The translations under genes and the position numbers were made by a program. The notes beneath the pieces are model-generated. The model saw only the letters and a program-made list of their open reading frames with translations, was not told the DNA's origin and did not search any database. 64,000 nucleotides of DNA, taken from Gordius sp. MW1 (taxonomy: Eukaryota; Nematomorpha; Gordioida; Gordea; Gordiidae). The stretch is from assembly GCA_964036665.1 (NCBI GenBank), contig OZ038526.1, forward strand, positions 10,602,001-10,666,000, given 5' to 3'. Positions 5,079 through 33,524 of this stretch are shown piece after piece; positions within the stretch are counted from its first letter, which is position 1; every line of letters starts with the position of its first letter.

Positions 5079-5939
5079 CCTCACACTAGAGAACTGCACG
5101 GGTGACCCGTTGGTCAAAAATATTGAAATTTCTTCGGGTCGGGTTCGGGTTAAAAATTTTAAAATGCTTTCGGGTCGGGTTTAAAGTGTCGGGTCAAAGG
5201 TTATGAATCTTACAATCCAAAATACACGGGACATATTTTTTAAAATTAATGCTATGATGTATAATATTTGTTAATTAATATCGAAATGTGTAATCAAGAT
5301 CGTTCATTTAGTTAATTTTTTTGTGCAATAGAGTTTTATTTAAATTCCTTTTATTTTTATAGATCTGATAGTTTTAATTTGGACGCAAATTTAAATTTGA
5401 CTCGTGAAAGGTAAAATATATCAACAAATTAATATTTTTAAATTGTAGTTAAATAGTGTAAAGTGGTAGTTCATTATTAATTTAACCTAAAAATATAGAT
5501 TCAAAAATAAAAACTCGGGCCTTCGGCCCTCGTGGGAAGAGGGAGGGGAGAAGGGAAGGGGGGAAGGGAAGGGGGGACGACTCATCTTTACTTCGTATAA
5601 ATGTATCATATTTGCTATGCAATTTATGGGCGAGAAAGGTGGGAAGGGGCGAGAATGCCTATAGGGGGGTATTAAATGCCTAATGATTAATTAATTATTT
5701 ATACAAATTTTTCATTTATAGGCAAAATGTAATATAGGCAAAATGTAATATAGGCAAGGGTTAGGGTTAGATTTAGTGTTTGCATCTAGTTGTGTATTAC
5801 ATTGGTTTTTATGGCCTTTAGTGATTATGGGTCTAACAAACATTATATTATAAAACATCACAATGTTAAGAATTTGCAGAATTGTTGGGAGAAATTTTTT
5901 GTTGAATTTGAACAATTTTTAATTAAAAAAATCAAAAAT

Positions 5940-7587: not shown

Positions 7588-7769
7588 CACACCGATTATT
7601 CTTGGCACTCGCGAAAATTTGAAACCCGTTCGGAGGAAATTCGGTTAACAAATTTTTAACGCTTTCGGGCCGGGTCGGGTTGAAAATTTTAAAATGCTTT
7701 CGGGTCGGGTTCGGGCTAAAAATTGTAAAAAAATTTGGAATTGACAAAAAGTGACTTTGCAGTTCGCTA

Positions 7770-21239: not shown

Positions 21240-23690
21240 ATGGGGTCGGTATCGTATAAAGCCAATCTTCAAGGCAAGGTGGTAAGTCAAGCGTTGTTAA
21301 AACAGGTTAATGTGGGTGAAGATTGAAAATCAAGGAAGCCTCGTAATGGTTATTTGCGTGTATGCTCCCCAAGTGTATGGAATCAGAGAAAGATTTATTC
21401 TACGATTCGTTGGGAAGAGAAATGCAAGGAATCGGACAGGAAGAAAGGCTAATTATTGGAGATTTCAACACTCACGTAGGGATAGATCGCCTCGGTTATG
21501 AACGAAACCATGGAGGCTAGCATGATCTGAAGAACAAAGAAGGGAAAACTTCCTCAAGTATCCCAAGCATACGACATGGCGATCGTAAACACCTATTTTT
21601 TAAAACGCGAATAGCATATTGTGACTTATAGATGTGGGAATCTGCTCGGCGAAAGGATTTATAAAGTATCATGGATTTCAAAGTAATACCGGAAGAAGAA
21701 ATTGGCAGGCAACATCGTCCCCTTATTATATATCGCGAGGGAAAAGTATTACCCAAAAGAAGAAAGGGTTTTGAACCTTGAATTCGATACTAAAGGCTAG
21801 AGGATAGGTCGACGAACGAAAAATACCATCAAAAAGCTTCCTCACTCTTGGGAAAGTTGCAAAGGGACTTGGAAGACGATTGAGAGACGCTAACTAGGGA
21901 CATGGAAACAGCGATTCGAAGTGACAGACCAAAAGAAGCAAAGCTTTAAATAGGGAACTATGATAGTGGGATAATTCGGTAGGGGGCTTTAGCGAAAGGC
22001 GGTGGCTTATATCAAAAAAGTTGGAGATCTATTAATATAGGAAGGCGAAGAGAGGCGCGAAAAAGGCCGTTGCAGTAATGAAGAATATCGCGTACGCCGA
22101 GATTGCAAACAAACTGGACCATAATAAAGGCGATAGGCTTATTTAGAAATTTGCCAAGATAAGGAAGAAGAAATGCCGCGATGTCGCAGACCTTAAAACA
22201 GTCAAACACGAGAAGGTTCAAACCTCATTTAATGTGGAAAGAATATTTAAACGAACTTATAATTATTGCAAATGACAAAGATTTTCTTCCCGATATTGAG
22301 CCAAACATGGTATAGTCGAACTCTATTTGGAGGATGAAAGTAGGACTTAAAAGAATAAAATGCAAAAAGGAAAAGTTAATGGCCCAGATGATATATCTAT
22401 GGAGGCATTGCTTGGATGCCGTGAAGAAGGTGTCACGACCATGATGACTCAGATATATATTGGTAGAAGAGTGAATTACTAATCAATGGAATGGAGTGCA
22501 AGGACACCCTTGTTTAAAGGCAAAGGAGACCCTCAAGATTGTGACAATAACAAAGGTACCAGGCACTTACCACTCTTGGTAATGAAGAAGAAAAACGAAG
22601 TGGAAATATCAGTTATTCAATTCGGATTTGTGGCCGGCATATCCACAATCGACCTAATCTTTACACTAATACAGATGATGGATAAATATGGTGTAAAGAG
22701 AAGAGACTGTATATGGTCTTTATCGACTTGGAGAAAGCTTAGGACGCGGGCCCTTGTTCTTTAATATGTCGGTGCCTGAGAAAACATAATATATAGCTTA
22801 TGAAATATATTTATGAAGCCTAAATTCGTACGTTAGGACGACAGTTGGAATCTCTAAACCTTTATAAGTCCCTTTATATTTAATATAATTTTAAAAACAA
22901 AATGTCATCACCATGGTGCATTCTACATGCCGATGATATTGTGCTATGCGAAGAGACGGAGAAAGTATTAGAAGAAGCCGAAAAGTGGTCAAGCTGGATA
23001 TGGTTTAAAGGTCAATCGAAAAATTGTATATATGGAAATGAACGTTACAGGTAGCCCATCGCTGTATGATCATCTAATGTTCTCAAAAGTAGACAGGTTT
23101 ACATACCTCGGCTCAATGGTACATCAAGAGGGAGGTTGCGCAACAAAAGTCAATGCCCGGATCCCAAAAGGATCCCCTAAATGGCGAAGTACATCCGGTG
23201 TAATGTGCAACATGTAAATGCCAATATGGTTAAAGAGCAAAGCTTTCATCCATCGTAAGACCGGTGTTACTATATGGAAGTGAAACATGGGTATTAAACA
23301 TCACGGAAGAAAAGCTATTACAAGCCAAAGAGACGAAGATGATGCGGTGGAGTTTGGGGTATACTAAGCTCGACCATATGACGAATGACTTTCTCATGAC
23401 AAAGATGGATATACAACTCATGGCGGCCATGATTAACGAAAATAGGCTAAGGTGATACGGCATATACTAAGAAGGGTGACAAATGATATAAATTGAAAAG
23501 TACTGGACATGGAGGTACCGGGGAATAGAGAAAGAGGCGTGTCACGTGGAAATGGCAGTTCGACAAAGTTATGGAAACAAAAGAGATTAATCAAGATACG
23601 GCACATACCCGGTCAAGATGGAAGAAACTCATCGAAACAAACCCAACGATTGTGGGACCAAATACTTGATAAAGAAAAAGACATATAATT
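21240..23690 (+). pseudogene. RTE-type LINE, degraded endonuclease-RT copy
   Basis: Short frames on the plus strand follow the order of a non-LTR retrotransposon ORF. An AP-endonuclease piece (ICVYAPQVYG, then LIIGDFNTHVG near 21450) comes first. RT pieces follow: PLFKGKGDPQDCDN, QFGFVAGISTIDLIFTL, and HADDIVLCEETEKVLEEAEK (22929 on; the catalytic YADD is written HADD). The C-terminal region reads FTYLGSMVHQEGG, LLYGSETWVL, and ends with a LWDQI block near 23660. Frames change many times, so this is dead. Related fragments: 36031-36180, 51775-52131 with 58060-58243, and 61007-61240 (minus). The YLGS...LLYG.E pattern is typical of RTE/BovB-like elements. Confidence 0.8.
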
Positions 23691-23699
23691 ATTTACATA

Positions 23700-24811
23700 T
23701 AAGGGAAAATTTAAAATTGTATAAATTTTTGTTATAAAGTCAATACATGTCGAGATTTCGTGTCGAGACGAGATGAGACCGAGATTTTTCTAGGCCATTA
23801 ATTGAGATCGAGATTTTCATATTAGCCCACGAAACGTCGAGACGAGATTTTGATTTCGAGAGGAGGCGAGATCAAAACAAGATCAGCATATTGCTCTTTT
23901 CTAAATAAATTAAGATCTTGTTTTGTGAAAGATTTATTGTTTGTTGTAAAGTATGTCGTGGCAAAAGCGACTATTTTACTAAGCAATATAAATAAGATAG
24001 ACCTATATATAGAGTTGTTGTGCAATTACTTAAATATATCGAAGTGTGTGCAATAAAAGGATAAATATTATCTAAGGTAAATCAAGGTTAAGTTAGCTGC
24101 AGAGTTAATAAGCTAAATAATTAGTATTTAAATTAAGATACTACATAATTAAATATAATTTTTCTAATGGAACACTTATTTATTTATTTTAAATTTATAA
24201 AAGTGTAAAATCTTCAGGACCCATTTTACAAAAATTAAATTTTTAAAAATAAATATTATTAATTCTTCTATTGATTAATGAGTTTGATATTCGTTTACAA
24301 TTAATATTAAAGTTAACATCTTAATTGGCATTCATTCACTTTGCATAACAATCATCTGAAACAATTAAACAAAACATCGGAAAATGCTCAAAATTTGGCT
24401 GGGTTTCTTTTTCCTTATAGATTTTTTCACAAAACTAAGTGAGATATTGCTTAATTTTATTTATTTATTATCTATATAGATTAAATACTATTATCTAGTT
24501 AGTTTTACATCCATTTTAGTCAATCATAGCTTTGAAAGATAAAATCTTTTAACCTTTTAAAGATTAAAAATTTACACCTATACATTTTTGTAGTATAAAT
24601 AAAAAATATTTTTTAGTGTTTGTAGTAAACAGCATCTGACTCTTAAGCCTGCAGAAGATATAAATAGATTAAAACTATATATTTATATAATTATATGAAA
24701 TATAAATAATATTTATCAAGATTTGTATTATTTATAATGCATATTCTACACCTTAACAAGTCTTAATTAAGTTAACTTTTGGCTTTGCTCTTATGTTTGA
24801 AATAGGTTAGG
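23700..24811. other. No gene; GAGACGAGA repeat cluster at 23745-23880
   Basis: The cluster repeats GTCGAGACGAGAT/GAGATCGAGAT and resembles the hAT-like subterminal arrays at 12333, 14640 and 20420. The remainder is AT-rich without recognisable coding. Confidence 0.4.
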
Positions 24812-24956
24812 AATGGGCATAGCCAGGGGGGTGGCTGCCCCCCTAATTTACAGAAGAAAATTTTTTGAAAGATTAAAAAATTTTATGTTTTGCCCCCTCT
24901 AATTGAACTTTTAAACGTTTTGCCCCCCCCCAATCCAAAACCTGGCTACGCCCATG
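24812..24956. mobile_element. CGTAGCCAG-family MITE, 145 bp, perfect target duplication
   Basis: It begins AATGGGCATAGCCAGG and ends CCTGGCTACGCCCATG. It is flanked on both sides by AGGTTAGG (24804-24811 and 24957-24964). This is the cleanest copy for defining the family ends. Confidence 0.92.
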
Positions 24957-25773
24957 AGGTTAGGGACTAATATAATTGATAATATAAAAGCTAAGATTTT
25001 ATGTGTATTGAAATAAATTTAAGCTGCATAATATTATCTTTATCAAATAAGTAATATCAGGTAAAAAATTAATGGTTTTGTAAATGAATGCTTTATAAGA
25101 TTATTTGTTTTAGGGCTTTATATACAAATCTCATTATTTAAATTTGGCAATATTTTATTTATGAGCATAAAAAAATTTTAATGCTTATGTTATCAATAAC
25201 TTTTTAAATAAAAATACAGTCATGTATAAAGTTAATTTGGGCATTTTGCAAGTTATGTCCATATTTTATTTTTTAGTTGAAGCATATTACATGTTTTCCT
25301 TTTAATTTTAATAGACCGAATAATTATCATTTATTAATTGATTGCTGGGATCAATCGTCTTGACTATAATTATATCTATAAATGATAAAATCAATTCTTC
25401 CCTCAAGCATATTATGTAGCCATATTATCATAATCCCTCCACAGTCCGCATCACCTTGCCTTGAGTGATTTGCGAATAAATTTAATCAAATCATATCTTT
25501 TCTTCAAATTTAAGTTTTTAAAATAATTTTGACTAATGCTGTATAATGGATTCATATTCTAACACTCAAAAAAGAGGAAAGGGGAAACATAAAAGGTAAT
25601 CAAAATCTTTATAGCATTAACCCAAGAATGTTGGTTTCGTCTTATGTTAGAAAAAGAATACAGCTTATAAACTCCTAAGTTAATAAATACATTAAGCCCC
25701 TCGATTGTACAATTTATCATACGTGCAGCAGCAGCACAGCTTGTTGTAACCATTTATCCCGCAACATTTGCAG

Positions 25774-28700
25774 TTATGGGGTTGAGATGCTTTTGTGACA
25801 GAGATTGCCCGCCCGACTTTTTGGCACCCAAACTGCTGGAGCTGAAAGACAACAATTCGTGCTTGGCCCCGGCGCACAGCCAATGCTTTAGCGCGGTCCG
25901 TGTCGATTACGACTATCGCACCAAGCGCTACAAGGAAGTCTACACTTACGGTTGCTTGCCCCCCGAGGAGAAAAGCCTTATGCAGGTCAGTAGTCTATTA
26001 GCTCGTTTATGATTTGCATTCATGGGCGTTGCCAACATTGGGATTAGAGGGGGGTCATCATGATTTAGGTAGGAGCAAAATGATGAATTTTCAAATTTTT
26101 GGATTTAGAAGGGGGCAGCCGCCCCTCTCTGCCCACCCCTTGTCTACGTCCATGTTTGGATTAAAAAAATATGTTCGCTGATTCGCGTTTAGTTTTGAAG
26201 CGTACTAGCACTAATGCAAACCTGACTTAGATGTGACAAAAACTTGAGACATACCTGTAAGGGGCTATTTTGAGTGACGCTAAACGGGTATGTGATTTAT
26301 GTATTGAATTCTGAGGTGTCAATTTTGCTGGGTCAATCGGCTTAAATCGCTAAAAAGTATGTAATTGTTGGTTAGGTCAAAATGCTTTAGCCGAAAATAG
26401 GCACGAGGTGTAACATAATTAGGGCTAATGTAAAATCCTAGTTTTACCTTTGAATTATAATATATAGTAGTATCTTTTAATCGGCCCATGACATATCGCA
26501 TTTAACCTTGAAATATGGCTTGGCTAGAGCCGAATAAACACATTTGTCATTTTGCCCGTTTTACCATCAAAGGGCGGTTTTGGTAATAGTAAAGCCACAG
26601 GGCAAACCATTTAAAAGTTGAATATGATTGGGCAGTAATTTATTTATTTGATATTATTATGAAAAACCTATGATTTTAACACGGAAATAAAATAAGTTAT
26701 CGTTGCTTTCTATAAAAAAATCCCTAAGCTTAGGATCGGGATTATGCTTAGAGGTTTTATAAAATTTACATCATGCTTATTTGTCTGATGTAAAGAACCA
26801 TGGGTTTTTTACTGTTTTAATTAAAGATGTGTAAGAAACACAAAAATGAGTTGTATAGTTAGTTGAGGATATTAAGTTTAAATCGTGCACCTCCAGTCAC
26901 GGCCAGTGTGTGTGTTTGTCCAAATATTTATTAACAGGCATAAACTCTATAGACACTAACGACCTCAAGGAAGTTTGTGATGAAGGGTAACCGTTTGATG
27001 TAGAACGGACGTCAGAAACAAAACCATATTTAACCTTAAAGCACTTCTGTTCACTTTGTGTGACCTTTTTTTATCATAGTGACAACTTTTAACTTAATGA
27101 ACCTTGAATACGTCAAAAACTGAACGAAACATTTATCAAAATTTTTAATAAGTTATTATTATCTTTGAGGTTTTACTAAGTTTATTTTTTGTATTACCAA
27201 CGACTGATTGCCTATAAGTTGAGGGGCAATAGTGTTATCGTGTTGTAGGTAGGATTCTATCCGTATGAAGACTTTTTATATATAACATCTTTGCTAATTT
27301 AATAATTCATAACCCTTCATAATTTGCATAAATTTTAAGACTTGCGATTATAATTGTCACACTAAATTTTGACAACAAAAAGATTAAGGCATCCAATTTT
27401 GATTCTTGGAAAGCGGAAAAAATATTTTAAAAGATGAATTATTAAAAAAACACGTTTTCTTAAATAACCGACGACTTATTTAACGCATGTTTAATAAGAC
27501 TGAAAGTCAAACGCGTTCACTTTTTCAATTATTTTTCCTGTATTTACAGTGTCACGGGGATTTGGTGCCTCACTATTTGCCCAAAAATATCATATGCTGC
27601 GACCACTCCGATCTCTGCAACCAGGGCATCAAGCCACCCTACCAATGGCACATACCTCCCGAAAGTGGTGGAGGTAATGCCACGTTGTTATAACTCATTA
27701 TCTTTAAAAATGTTAAGGTTGTTGACTTTACAGTTGTTTAGAGTCATAATCTTTCAAAATTCATATGTTGGAAATCATTTTTGTACAAATTTTTAGTTTT
27801 GTTTTTTACGCTGAAACTTATTATTTTGTGTTAGAATTGTTGGTAAATGGAGACAGAAGTTTTACTGCGATCCTGGCCGTTACCATTGTCGGCTTCATGC
27901 TCCTCGCCTCTCTCATCATCTTCATTTATATCAGGTAAAACCTGGCGTTTTGTGAATGTTATCTAATCTAATCCCTCGATTCTTCCTACAGTCCATGCAT
28001 ATCAATGAAATAAATTGAGCGTGTTCGTTTTTAAATGTTGGCTTAAAACATGAAATAAACTCCCACTAAAACTTTCCTCAATTGATGATTTATGTTAAAA
28101 GTATAGCATAATTTATTTTTTAGTTATATTAAATATAGCAAAGCGAATCAAACACACGCCTCAATTTTTATTGTCCTGCTTCGTTTGACTCGAACGTTTT
28201 TTGAACCTGTGTGCTCTGTTAAAGTAAGAATCGTGCCAATTTCTGTTTTGGTCGGGTGCGCACCCCCCGAAACCCAATGTCGTTCAAAAATTAGGGCATA
28301 ATTTAGTGTTTTTGCTGCGATGTTAAATCTAAATTAAGGCTTCCAATGTAATTGGCCGACACTTAATACGGCAAGTTAAGAAAAAATTGTATTTCACCCT
28401 TTGACTTACTGTATATTTGAACCGATTAACGAATTTTAACCTTTCGCAAGGCTACGCAAGCGGGATAACATGCGAATTATTAAAAGCTTGTGCGCCGGTG
28501 GCAAGAACGGCTCCTTCTCCAGCCAGATAGACGACGAGCCACCCGGCTTCGGCCCCGACCGTTGCGGTGCCTGCCCTTGCGACGATCTAAAGGGGGCCTG
28601 CTGCATCGCGGGTCCGGCCTCGGCCTTGCACCACAAAAAACGCGGGCCCGGAGAATCGTTGCGCGATTGGATCGAACAAAGTTCGGGCAGCGGATCCGGC

Positions 28701-31700
28701 CTACCACTTTTGGTAAGCCCACACTTAAACTTTATGACCGCATAGAAGGAAATTTACTTGAGCGTTCTAGTGAAGTAACAAGCTCTAACATATGGGAACT
28801 ATAAGACTTACCATTTTGTTGTTTTTTCATTCGTTTTTATAGTGCTAGATCTATTATGGGCTAAATTGTTTGGTTTGATAAAGTTGAATTGGGTGCTATG
28901 AGAGCCCGCGTTCGTTACTCATAATCGCCTTTACATATTACACATTAATTATACGGTAGGATTTAGTTGATTTGGCGTTGAAATTTGTTTGCCTTAGTGT
29001 TTTTAAGCAATTATTAAATCACTTCTTACAAGTTCGATGTTCCTGCTCATATGAATTGACGATAGTGTCCACTCACTAAAAGAACGAGGAGCATATCAAA
29101 TTATTTGCACAATTATAAACCAAAAATTATTTATTTAAAGCTGGCTTTTTTTTTTAATTAAAAAGAGGCCACGTGAGGGAAGTAATTATTTGCTATACCG
29201 TCGTTTTTTAAAATAATGATCGTACCCAAAGAAATTCCCATCTTCATGTCATATGAATTACTTTTATATTACGCATGATGTGCCTAGGTTCAAAGGACCA
29301 TAGCCAAGCAGATCCAATTGATCAAAGTGATTGGAAAGGGGCGGTACGGCGAGGTTTGGGAAGGAAGGTGGAGGGGTGAGAGCGTGGCCGTCAAGATTTT
29401 CTTTACCACGGAGGAGGCCAGTTGGTTTCGAGAAACCGAAATTTACCAGACCACCTTGATGCGGCACCAAAACATCCTGGGTAATTTTGCCACTCCTGCT
29501 TGGGCTAGGTTCATTACTTTTGCCTTCTCCTATTTCGTACATTTCTTGGTTTTGTGAAATTACATTCACGAACAAATTTGCATCGCTGCACTTAGGAAAT
29601 GTGGTTTTTTATTATTTAGATTGTGTGTTTTTGGAAAGGAGCTTATGTAATACATTTTCGTTTAAGGCATTGTATTTACTTTAACCCGACGAGTACTGAA
29701 AATTATTTGCAACCGACGCAATGCATTATATTGCTATTTGCTATATTCGCCTTTAAACGGTGTGCTTTAAATTAAACGATAAGAAAAAATTTTGACATGG
29801 CAAAAAATTTCTTACTTACCGCATTATGCCCCCACGGGTTTAAAATTATCAAAGTGGTACTGTTTATGGAAATACGATCGAAATATTAATCCCTTCACAA
29901 CTTTATTTTTTGCTCTTTCACCGCTACAGGTTATATAGCCGCCGACATAAAAGGGACCGGGTCTTGGACGCAGCTCTTCCTCATTACGGATTATCACGAG
30001 TATGGTTCGCTGTACGATTACCTTAAAACCGCCATCCTGGATCAAACTTCCACTCTGAATCTCATACAGTCCATCATTAGTGGGCTGTGCCATTTACATA
30101 CCGAAATACTCGGGACTCAAGGTTAGTAATTGCTCGTTCTCTAATTATAAAATGATTGAACAAACTATATCAGGAACGACCAAGAATAAATGATGTTTTA
30201 AGGAAGGGGGGGCGGGTAATGTTTTGTTTCCTGCTCAGTCTCGGTCTTTGGGCATTCAAGCCATGCTGAATCATTTATTTACCTGAATTTTTTGTGGTTG
30301 ATGTTATACAATAGTTCGAATTATGCGAAAGATATTGTAATCACCAAATTCTTGAATTTAACCTTAGAAAACTTTTTAGAATTGTATTGATAGTATCAGA
30401 TGAGGCTAGAATATGAGCTCACTTGAAACTTTTTAGTTTTGCTCTCGGATCTTTACGCTTGCTACATTTAGAAATCGGTATTTAATAGGGAAACCTGCCA
30501 TAGCCCATCGAGACATGAAGAGCAAAAACATCTTGGTCAAAAAAGATGGCACCGCCTGCATCGCCGATTTGGGATTAGCCGTAAGATTTATCAGGTAATT
30601 AATAACTGAATTATATTTACTTTTGATTTAGTTTTGTGTTAATCTTCATCTCTCGCTTAACTAAATAGGCCACCTATTAACAATTATTGTTTTTTTATAT
30701 CTCATTTTCATTATAGATTGTTCATCAAACGTACATGGTATTATTTAAAACATTCTTTAAATCTAGTTTGTGTTGCCATTTCATTGATTCCGAATATTTT
30801 TGCTATTTTAAAATCACGTTTTGCTTCAGATTTGTTTAACCTATTCATACAAAAAAGCAACAATTTTTTGCGCCAATCGAGTCTTAAGCTTAAATGGGGA
30901 AATATTTATAATTAGTGAAACCAACGAGATCGACATCCCAGCTAATCCCAGGGTCGGGACCAAGAGGTACATGGCTCCCGAGATACTGGACGACACTTTT
31001 GACCGCGACAACTTTGACTCGTTTAAGGCGTGTGACGTTTACGCCTTCTCCCTCATTGTGTGGGAAATATGTCACAGATGCGTGTCCAAAGGTAAAGCCG
31101 CATTTGTTACGCTCACTAAAAATACCATAACTTCATGTTATTATTCACGTGCACGCAAAGTTTATAAAATAACGTGTCGAATTCAGGTTTGGGAAGGAAG
31201 TATTATAAATCTCGGGTTTAAGTTGTAATAATAATGTGAAACGTGGTTGGTCACATGAACAAAACCCCCAACTTTAAAGATTCTTTGCTTAATTATAACC
31301 AATTGGGAGGCTCTTAAATGTGGTGCTGAAGTTTCAGATATTTTTTGGTGTGTTTTAGTCACAAGAAGATTGGTTAATTCTTTACAGTTTCCCGGACCAT
31401 TAGCGATGGGATCAATAAAACAAATTTGGCAAAAACAAAAAATCCTGATTTTATGATTTCTTTTCAAATCTAACCCAATAAATTTTTGTTGATAAATCTA
31501 ACGACAATAACTCAATTTTCTAAAGGCATCATTCAATAAAGTGCAAACGCCCAAGTCACTTATATTAGCTTTTTACTTTAAAAATGATTTTGCCTCCTTA
31601 ACATGTATGAATTTAGGCAAGGTTGATGAATACAAGATTCCTTATTACGACTGCGTGGCGGCGGATCCATCATTCGACGAGATGAAAGAGATCGTAAGCG

Positions 31701-31935
31701 TGAAAAAGATCAGGCCCAAGCTGCATTCCAGATGGCTGGCTGATAAGGTAAAATTAGTATATAATTTTTGCGTCAACTCAATTTGCTTTAACTCTCACCC
31801 TTTCAATAGTTTTTGACGTCTTTGATCCGAATTATGCAAGAGTGCTGGCGCCCTAACCCCAACGCCCGTTTGACGACGCTCAGGATCAAAAAGTCACTAA
31901 ACGACATCAAATGTGACAATATAGCTGCTGTTTAA
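25774..31935 (+). CDS. BMPR1: BMP type I receptor serine/threonine kinase (thickveins/BMPR1), ten coding exons
   Basis: Exons: 25774-25985, 27550-27673, 27835-27934, 28451-28712, 29288-29480, 29930-30121, 30489-30594, 30916-31091, 31617-31747, 31810-31935. Junctions are GT-AG and keep one frame, giving 539 residues from the first Met. The ectodomain has the three-finger cysteine pattern (CFCDRDC ... [11 protein letters not shown]). A membrane helix lies at about 122-144, the GS box [11 protein letters not shown] at about 222-232, then the kinase: [17 protein letters not shown]45 loop [11 protein letters not shown] (the BMP-Smad-specifying sequence of ALK3/6/Tkv), [18 protein letters not shown]. 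The receptor binds BMP ligand with a type II receptor and phosphorylates Smad1/5. The first exon may continue upstream: the same frame is open for about 33 codons ([17 protein letters not shown]), or an acceptor ends at 25773 and the signal peptide lies on an unseen exon. The cytosolic juxtamembrane part carries an unusual cysteine cluster. Exons are GC-rich against AT-rich introns (62-1564 bp). Confidence 0.95.
26021..26154. mobile_element. CGTAGCCAG-family MITE in BMPR1 intron 1
   Basis: It begins CATGGGCGTTGCCAAC and ends GTCTACGTCCATG. Flanks TTTGCATT and TTTGGATT give an 8-bp duplication with one mismatch. It starts 36 bp after the exon's donor site. Confidence 0.8.
27992..28013 (+). CDS. 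Possible alternative terminal exon of BMPR1 (decoy isoform)
   Basis: A strong acceptor (ATTCTTCCTACAG, ending 27991) lies 57 bp after the donor of the membrane-helix exon (27934). Splicing to it keeps the frame and adds SPCISMK followed by TAA. The stop overlaps an AATAAA (28009-28014) and another AATAAA follows at 28054-28059. The product would be a secreted-domain-plus-membrane receptor without GS box and kinase, comparable in architecture to BAMBI. Seen in sequence: acceptor, stop and poly(A) signals. Inferred: that it is used. Confidence 0.4.
28009..28059 (+). promoter_or_regulatory. Two intronic poly(A) signals in BMPR1 intron 3
   Basis: AATAAA at 28009-28014 and 28054-28059, directly behind the candidate alternative exon and upstream of the juxtamembrane exon (28451). 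Confidence 0.4.
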
Positions 31936-32600
31936 TACCGCCGGCTACTTAATGTCCCGACAACACCACATATGTACATACCCACCCACTCTCACTAAAA
32001 ATGTTTGTACATAAATTTTAGATAGATGATAATATCGAAATGACTTATTATAAATTATGCTCTATTTTTGATACCACTCATTCTCATTACGTCGAACACT
32101 CACTCGGTAACAACGAGAAGGCCAGAGATCTTGCACAAACTATTATATCATTCGTATTTTTTTATACGTCATGATTACGTCTTCCCTCCTCGGTCGGTCA
32201 TCTTTCACATATGATAATACATTTGCCACTATGCATAAGTAATATGACTTTTAAAACCCTTGATCCTCCTATACGACTTCCACCACCGCCCCTCCCCCTC
32301 ACCTCAACATTGTACATCTATGCATCTTACGCGTGACATATTTTCATATTTTTTACACTAGACTAGATTGAGCTAATCCAGGCTGCCAATTTATATATGC
32401 ATACGTATGTGTACCTATGTGCATGTTCAACTATTTACATTTTTGTCTACCGTCTTTATATATTTTTTATAATATCTTTCTATAAAAGGAATTTTGACTA
32501 TTTTTTTAATTTATAATCGTGATTATTATTACGAGGCGTCTACCATACTGTAAGGCTACCATTATGTGAAATAAACTTTTGATTAAAAACGGCGTTTTTA
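31936..32600 (+). other. BMPR1 3' UTR and poly(A) signal
   Basis: Less AT-rich than its surroundings up to about 32580. A single well-placed AATAAA lies at 32570-32575 (GTGAAATAAACTTTTGATT) before the sequence returns to background. This would give a 3' UTR of about 650 bases. Confidence 0.5.
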
Positions 32601-32824
32601 ATTAATATCAAGATATGTTTTCATATAATACATGGCTTGAGCTCATTATATATAATCTGTTAACAATTTTGAAGATTCTTAAAAAGGAGTTATATTGCTT
32701 TTAATAATTGCGCTTTTCATATAAATTAAATCAAGTTGCACCGTTATTTTAAGGTTAAAAAAATTATGTAACTTTATATTACTCTGTGTGAGTGCGACTT
32801 AAAATAAAAATAAACAGCTAAGTA

Positions 32825-32977
32825 CATAGGCGTAGCCAGCATTGCAATCAGAGAGGGGCAATAATTATTTTGGGAGGGGAAAAATGATAATTATTTGAAA
32901 TTTTAGCCATAATTTTAATAATTAACCAATTTTTTGGATTTAGAGGGGGGCAGCCACCCCTCCCTGCCCCCCCCCCG
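32825..32977. mobile_element. CGTAGCCAG-family MITE, right end damaged
   Basis: It begins CATAGGCGTAGCCAGC; the C-rich right half stops without the expected ACGCCCATG end. GCTAAGTACAT occurs on both sides (32817-32827 and 32978-32988), a direct repeat that marks the insertion. Confidence 0.6.
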
Positions 32978-33524
32978 GCTAAGTACATGCATATAGCTTA
33001 AAAGCTATCAGAAGCAATGTATTTTATTCAAGTACTTGGCATTATAAATATCTTTTTATAAGGGCACCTTATAAAAAACTGTTTAACAACATGTAAAACT
33101 TAATTTAGGTGTATAAATATTATACAAACTTTATTTATATTTCTCAAAGTTTTGATATTCTTGTATTATTAGATGCGGGTGTTTAGGCAGTTAAAACCAA
33201 CATTTAAGGCACCGTTAAAATTTTTAATTAAAATGTTGCGACTCTTGTTTAAAATTAATAGGCTAAGAAAGAACTCTCATCAACTAAAAAAATAGGGCAC
33301 GATTTTAAATTCCTCACTCACTAGAAATTTACATTTTCGTAAATCCTACCTTTTAATATATTAGCAACGATGAGCAAGCTTTTATAGGGTGTTTTTTCAA
33401 CCTAAATCGCAAATCTGGCATTAATAATTTTGCCAACTGCGACTAATAACATTTTTAAACCACTGATGAATTAACGACACTAGATAATACATGATTTAAA
33501 TTTCGGCATATTTAAGTATTTATG

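What the first reader, a model, noticed from the sequence alone, without database searches (positions are those of the whole stretch)
27835..28059. Predicted kinase-less BMP receptor isoform from an alternative last exon
The exon with the membrane helix can splice over only 57 bp to a strong acceptor (ATTCTTCCTACAG). It then reads seven residues (SPCISMK), stops, and meets two poly(A) signals, all before the juxtamembrane/GS exon. The product would be an ectodomain plus membrane helix, a dominant-negative decoy like BAMBI but encoded by the receptor gene itself. The acceptor, frame, stop and AATAAA are seen; use of the exon is inference.
Basis: partly seen in the sequence, partly recalled or inferred. 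Interest (0 to 1): 0.75.

Follow-up and report, generated by a model that had tools for sequence, protein, structure and literature searches.

The report
Possible kinase-less hairworm BMP receptor exon
In a hairworm's BMP receptor gene, the intron after the membrane helix holds a usable splice site, a stop codon and poly(A) signals that could make a receptor without its kinase, but nothing shows that the worm uses them and chance explains them about as well.

Summary
The sequence is as described. The gene is a type I BMP receptor of a nematomorph (best hit Gordionus, 66% identity). From the helix exon (27835-27934) a 57-nt intron reaches an AG at 27990-27991; the frame reads SPCISMK and stops (28011-28013), with AATAAA at 28009 and 28054, before the juxtamembrane/GS exon (28451-28712). 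Introns of 43, 62 and 82 nt occur in this genome, so 57 nt is acceptable. The acceptor is ordinary: better than 5 of 9 real ones in the gene.

In shuffles of this intron an equal acceptor occurs in 18-24%, acceptor plus stop plus AATAAA in about 2%, acceptor plus two AATAAA in 0.2-0.3%. No transcript or related genomic DNA was available, and no nematomorph short form stands out among 64 protein hits.

A kinase-less product does not need the alternative acceptor.

Most likely an ordinary intron with a cryptic acceptor (0.57); a true alternative last exon is possible (0.23). The kind, truncated receptors by intronic polyadenylation, is known.

The parts
25774..31935 (+). BMPR1 coding exons found here: 25774-25985, 27550-27673, 27835-27934, 28451-28712, 29288-29480, 29930-30121, 30489-30594, 30916-31091, 31617-31747, 31810-31935; first exon(s) with start codon and signal peptide not found
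   Evidence: one frame of 539 residues; Pfam ectodomain, GS, kinase; Gordionus 66%
27835..27934 (+). membrane-helix exon, ends in phase 2 at CAG|GTAAAA
   Evidence: most hydrophobic 19 residues of the short form lie here (residues 124-142, mean 2.91)
27935..27991 (+). putative alternative intron, 57 nt, GT...CTACAG
   Evidence: acceptor 7.51 bits
27992..28085 (+). putative alternative last exon (end approximate, inferred from the second AATAAA); reads SPCISMK-stop
   Evidence: use not shown
28011..28013 (+). in-frame stop TAA of the short form
28009..28014 (+). AATAAA number 1, overlapping the stop codon
28054..28059 (+). AATAAA number 2
28128..28133 (+). ATTAAA in the same intron
27935..28450 (+). 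constitutive intron of 516 nt, unique in the genome; reading through its donor gives arginine and stop
   Evidence: one match, itself
28451..28712 (+). next constitutive exon: juxtamembrane stretch and GS box
32570..32575 (+). candidate AATAAA of the normal 3' end
   Evidence: use not shown

Best explanation
This is the ordinary constitutive intron between the membrane-helix exon and the juxtamembrane/GS exon of a hairworm BMPR1 gene. It holds one acceptor-like site of average quality 57 nt after the donor, and AATAAA words, which are common in this AT-rich sequence. The working receptor is made by splicing 27934 to 28451. Any use of the 27992 site is low-level splicing noise without a regulated product. 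Shown: exon structure, frame, sequence elements and their chance rates. Inferred: that the site is not used to a meaningful degree.
For: Equal acceptors occur in 18-24% of shuffles of this intron and 14 of 100 (10 of 64) such acceptors in 121,000 nt of real sequence have an AATAAA near by. AATAAA occurs 151 times on the + strand of the 64-kb window. A second unused site of equal strength lies in another intron of this gene (30830). The canonical acceptor scores as well (7.90) and the encoded protein matches Gordionus across the canonical junction (RLRKRDN / RLKKIDN). No nematomorph short form stands out among 64 hits. In human data skipped terminal exons lie in much longer introns and membrane proteins are depleted among intronic polyadenylation genes (PMC5928244, passages).
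Against: The full conjunction is uncommon for one intron: acceptor, near stop and AATAAA about 2% of shuffles, with two AATAAA 0.16-0.34%. The site sits in the one intron where it would give an anchored ectodomain. A branch-point-like CTAAT pair lies 20 and 25 nt before the acceptor, though no real intron of this gene has that word there. Absence from the protein database is weak evidence because no protein of this species was seen there.
Confidence: 0.57

Rival explanations
1. One reading: a real skipped terminal exon. The helix exon splices to 27992, the transcript is cut after the second (or first) AATAAA, and the product is ectodomain plus helix with the tail SPCISMK. With its stop in the last exon the mRNA should escape nonsense-mediated decay. 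The protein would bind ligand or sit in receptor complexes without GS box and kinase and so damp BMP signalling.
For: All signals in order within 125 nt of the donor; acceptor better than 5 of 9 real ones; acceptor plus two AATAAA in only 0.16-0.34% of shuffles; introns of 43, 62 and 82 nt exist in this genome; ectodomain cysteines intact.
Against: No transcript, no conservation data, no nematomorph short form among 64 hits. With the first AATAAA the exon would be only about 45 nt long. Criteria were chosen after the site was seen.
Confidence: 0.23
2. Composite terminal exon: the donor is sometimes not used, the transcript is cleaved at an intronic AATAAA, and translation stops at once after the helix (IR-stop). 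The alternative acceptor plays no part. The product is the same anchored ectodomain without SPCISMK.
For: Phase-2 GTAA donor gives an immediate stop. Two AATAAA and one ATTAAA within 200 nt of the donor. In human data composite exons are the commoner form, 1648 of 2675 assembled isoforms (PMC5928244, passages). The exon boundary is shared with other animals: 8 of 64 short hits end exactly there.
Against: The donor is not weak (7.6 bits, real donors here 5.1-9.4). The donor hairpin is not special. No RNA evidence.
Confidence: 0.1
3. Poison cassette exon: 27992 is joined to the helix exon, and a downstream donor rejoins 28451. The premature stop sends the mRNA to decay, so the site tunes receptor amount and makes no protein.
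For: Donor-like sites AAA|GTAAGA at 28224 (6.6 bits) and CGG|GTGCGC at 28256 (9.3 bits) lie downstream (generic matrix set from memory).
Against: AATAAA signals lie between the acceptor and these donors. Donor-like sites are common by chance (not quantified here). No RNA evidence.
Confidence: 0.1

Closest known systems
Truncated receptors by intronic polyadenylation, e.g. DAF-2B insulin receptor of C. elegans (PMC7041946, passages) and PDGFR-alpha (cited there)
   Same: Ectodomain kept, signalling domain lost, short tail read from intron sequence, intronic AAUAAA.
   Different: DAF-2B is shown by cDNA and knock-in and lacks a membrane domain; here the helix is kept, the receptor is a serine/threonine kinase, and nothing is shown to be expressed.
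BAMBI pseudoreceptor (PMC9964332, passages)
   Same: Type I receptor-like ectodomain and membrane anchor without kinase; blocks receptor complexes.
   Different: BAMBI is a separate gene of 260 residues with its own function shown; here it would be an isoform of the receptor gene with a seven-residue tail, and no activity is shown.
Skipped terminal exon isoforms in human cells (PMC5928244, passages)
   Same: New acceptor after an existing donor, then an intronic AATAAA.
   Different: Those are defined by 3'-end and RNA-seq reads and lie in much longer introns than this one of 516 nt.
Truncated ALK4 and ALK7 isoforms of mammals (recalled, no call)
   Same: Natural type I receptor isoforms with incomplete or missing kinase.
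   Different: Mammalian activin/nodal receptors, known from cDNA; not compared here.

Membership tests
Type I BMP receptor (BMPR1 / Thickveins group) | Activin-receptor ectodomain, GS box and kinase in one protein | tested here: met
   Pfam PF01064, PF08515 and PF00069 above cut-off; best solved match BMPR1B kinase
Type I BMP receptor (BMPR1 / Thickveins group) | Closest relatives are BMPR1 | tested here: met
   Best hit Gordionus BMP receptor, 66%, full coverage; the named hits among the 120 listed are mostly BMPR1B-type; no tree was built
Skipped terminal exon isoform (intronic polyadenylation) | Donor, new acceptor, in-frame stop and poly(A) signal inside one intron | tested here: met
Skipped terminal exon isoform (intronic polyadenylation) | Spliced and 3'-end-processed RNA exists | not testable with these tools
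   No RNA reads available; protein search found no such form but this species was not seen there
Skipped terminal exon isoform (intronic polyadenylation) | Signals conserved in related species | not testable with these tools
   No genomic DNA of another hairworm held; the genome has no relatives here
BAMBI-type pseudoreceptor | Ectodomain and membrane helix without GS box and kinase | tested here: inconclusive
   The predicted short form has this anatomy, but the protein is not shown to exist
BAMBI-type pseudoreceptor | Own gene | tested here: not met
   The exon lies inside the receptor gene
BAMBI-type pseudoreceptor | Blocks BMP/TGF-beta receptor complexes | not testable with these tools
   needs an assay

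The most novel reading that the evidence does not exclude
Hairworm BMPR1 carries its own anchored antagonist: a helix-exon junction with a built-in stop, plus an alternative last exon, lets the gene switch between signalling receptor and kinase-less decoy, perhaps by stage in the host. The shared phase-2 junction would make the same switch available to BMPR1 genes of other animals.
Probability: 0.2. Interest if true: 0.55.

Novelty: new member of a known kind. Interest (0 to 1): 0.25.

Why it matters
If used, it would be a receptor-encoded BMP decoy in a phylum with almost no functional data (my judgement), and a serine/threonine-kinase counterpart to truncated insulin and growth-factor receptors. 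If not used, it shows that an acceptor, a stop and an AATAAA can come together by chance in AT-rich introns, and that any phase-2 intron entered through AG|GTAA has a stop at its door.

Tried and rejected
Branch-point argument: two CTAAT words lie 20 and 25 nt before the alternative acceptor and make the conjunction look rare (0.08-0.22% of shuffles). I noticed them after the fact, and 0 of 9 real introns of this gene has CTAAY in that stretch, so I discount it.

Donor hairpin: a 6-pair stem covers the donor, but 3 of 43 comparable sites in the window fold as well, 25 of 43 are as hidden, and other real donors of the gene are as hidden. Rejected as a switch.

Short proteins as isoform evidence: P0001 and proteins ending at YLR, YLK or YMR looked like isoforms. 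P0001, P0129 and P0146 seem to carry upstream intron sequence, P0124-P0126 begin with intron-like sequence, and P0127 is a partial gene model, so they are most likely translations of genomic DNA. P0143 and P0144 I saw only as tails.

Mobile element: the intron has one match in the genome, itself (that search skips very common words). No Rfam family at 25000-33000.

Paralogue comparison: in the activin-type receptor L020 the exon with the likely helix runs on into a basic stretch, so its intron is elsewhere and gives no test. Loci L022 and L023 (flanks) were fetched and not used.

Literature: the listings (8 to 20 rows shown of those found; one search showed 3, one search found none) showed no paper on a natural kinase-less BMPR1 isoform by alternative last exon. 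The library lacks most subscription journals. Truncated ALK4 and ALK7 isoforms are recalled.

Full report
What the gene is. The window lies on contig C8 of a 212-Mb animal genome in 12 contigs. I rebuilt ten coding exons on the + strand: 25774-25985, 27550-27673, 27835-27934, 28451-28712, 29288-29480, 29930-30121, 30489-30594, 30916-31091, 31617-31747, 31810-31935. They give one frame of 539 residues from MGLRC to the stop. It has the activin-receptor ectodomain, GS box and kinase. The best solved structure is the BMPR1B kinase; the short form finds the BMPR1A ectodomain (E 9e-4). The best of the 120 listed proteins is a BMP receptor of Gordionus, a hairworm, at 66% over the whole query; the next is an annelid (Paralvinella) at 56% over 95% (4309 hits, only the 7987 candidates sharing most words were scored). 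So the gene is a BMPR1 of a nematomorph that is not that Gordionus; I did not establish the species. The start codon and signal peptide were not located: the frame is open upstream to 25671 without an ATG.

The observation. The helix exon ends CAG|GTAAAA in phase 2. An AG at 27990-27991 closes a 57-nt intron. The frame then reads SPCISMK and stops at 28011-28013. AATAAA lies at 28009-28014 and 28054-28059, ATTAAA at 28128-28133, all before the juxtamembrane/GS exon at 28451. A 57-nt intron is acceptable here: the last intron of the gene has 62 nt (31748-31809), and a second receptor-like gene (L021) has introns of 43 and 82 nt (the script printed the shorter one with one base too many, and I set its boundary by hand so that the frames join).

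How unusual is it? I scored acceptors with a matrix from the gene's nine acceptors plus generic columns that I set from memory. The alternative site scores 7.51 bits, better than 5 of the 9 real ones and near the intron's own acceptor (7.90); one other unused site in the nine introns reaches it (30830). In 5000 dinucleotide shuffles of the intron an equal acceptor appears in 24% (18% with the generic columns alone); acceptor plus stop within 60 nt plus AATAAA within 75 nt in 2.5% (1.8%); acceptor plus two AATAAA in 0.34% (0.16%). In 121,000 nt of real sequence 14 of 100 (10 of 64) equally good acceptors have an AATAAA within 75 nt, and 1 of 100 (0 of 64) has two. At these rates the gene's 4.5 kb of introns should hold 0.2-0.5 acceptor-plus-AATAAA pairs. 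The conjunction is thus uncommon in this intron taken alone and unremarkable over the gene; two AATAAA make it rarer. The thresholds were set after seeing the site, which favours the finding. The CTAAT pair before the acceptor would sharpen the figure to 0.1-0.2%, but no real intron of this gene has that word there (0 of 9), so I do not count it.

Because the donor is phase 2 and begins GTAA, failure to splice gives AGG TAA, arginine and stop. A kinase-less, membrane-anchored product thus follows from polyadenylation in this intron with or without the alternative acceptor. The exon boundary is shared with other animals: 8 of the 64 hits of a profile search over BMPR1 ectodomain and helix end exactly there, as YLR, YLK or YMR (P0124, P0125, P0126, P0127, P0129, P0143, P0144, P0146). 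Those that I read look like translations of genomic DNA or partial gene models, not isoforms, and P0125 and P0126 are the same gene, so these are not eight independent cases. One oddity is P0145: it matches P0124 up to YLR and then has 50 other residues. I could not trace it.

Evidence on use. There was no RNA and no related genomic DNA. The first short-form search gave one hit among 6 candidates (P0001, 37%). The profile search gave 64 hits among 1279 candidates; at 90% coverage or more the best identity to the hairworm sequence is 38%, so no nematomorph short form stands out. Its query included the Gordionus ectodomain and its length limits admitted a short form, so an annotated Gordionus short isoform should have appeared. 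Absence of one from this species says little, because no near-identical protein of this species was listed for the full-length receptor either.

How it would work if real. Ectodomain and helix would be kept, GS box and kinase lost. With the stop in the last exon the mRNA should be stable (general knowledge). The product would compete in receptor complexes, as kinase-deleted activin type II receptors do in frog embryos (PMC6953019, passage). Known models are DAF-2B, a truncated insulin receptor of C. elegans (PMC7041946, passages), and BAMBI, a separate kinase-less pseudoreceptor (PMC9964332, passages). In human immune-cell data 1648 of 2675 assembled intronic polyadenylation isoforms were composite exons, skipped terminal exons lay in much longer introns, and genes for membrane proteins were depleted (PMC5928244, passages). 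Those trends tilt against a skipped terminal exon here, if they hold in hairworms.

Verdict. Most likely (0.57) the intron is ordinary with a cryptic acceptor; a true alternative last exon stands at 0.23, a composite terminal exon at 0.10, a poison exon at 0.10. These odds are my judgement. The kind is known. One RNA-seq mapping would settle it.

Noticed in passing
28451-28712: Both hairworm BMPR1 proteins (this one and Gordionus P0002) have a juxtamembrane stretch between helix and GS box about 50 residues longer than in the annelid, nemertean and horseshoe-crab receptors aligned; the insert itself is poorly conserved.
   Followed up: partly
L021:2350-3700 (minus strand): A second receptor-like kinase gene with GTKRYMAPE but an altered glycine loop (VEKGSQIEIW) and a long insert between HRDLKSKNILV and DLGLA; possibly a divergent type I receptor or weak kinase.
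   Followed up: no
L020:2500-9424: An activin-type type I receptor whose GS box appears split by an intron (TSGSGSG near 5720, GLPLLVQRT near 7713), which may explain why the GS family search found one match in the genome.
   Followed up: no
P0124 and P0145: Two unnamed proteins that match through ectodomain and helix: one ends at YLR, the other continues with 50 unrelated residues, as an alternative or unspliced end of the same gene would.
   Followed up: no
26092-26154 and 32927-32989: A 63-nt repeat, 84% identical, in the first intron found and after the 3' UTR; a similar C-rich stretch is seen by eye near 24814-24960. Probably copies of a short mobile element.
   Followed up: no
about 22000-23700: Broken open frames upstream of the gene (e.g. 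23264-23455) look by eye like remains of a non-LTR retrotransposon; not searched.
   Followed up: no
25671-25775: The first exon found is open upstream without an ATG and reads AAAAQLVVTIYPATFAVMG before the ectodomain, which may be part of the signal peptide; the start exon was not found.
   Followed up: partly
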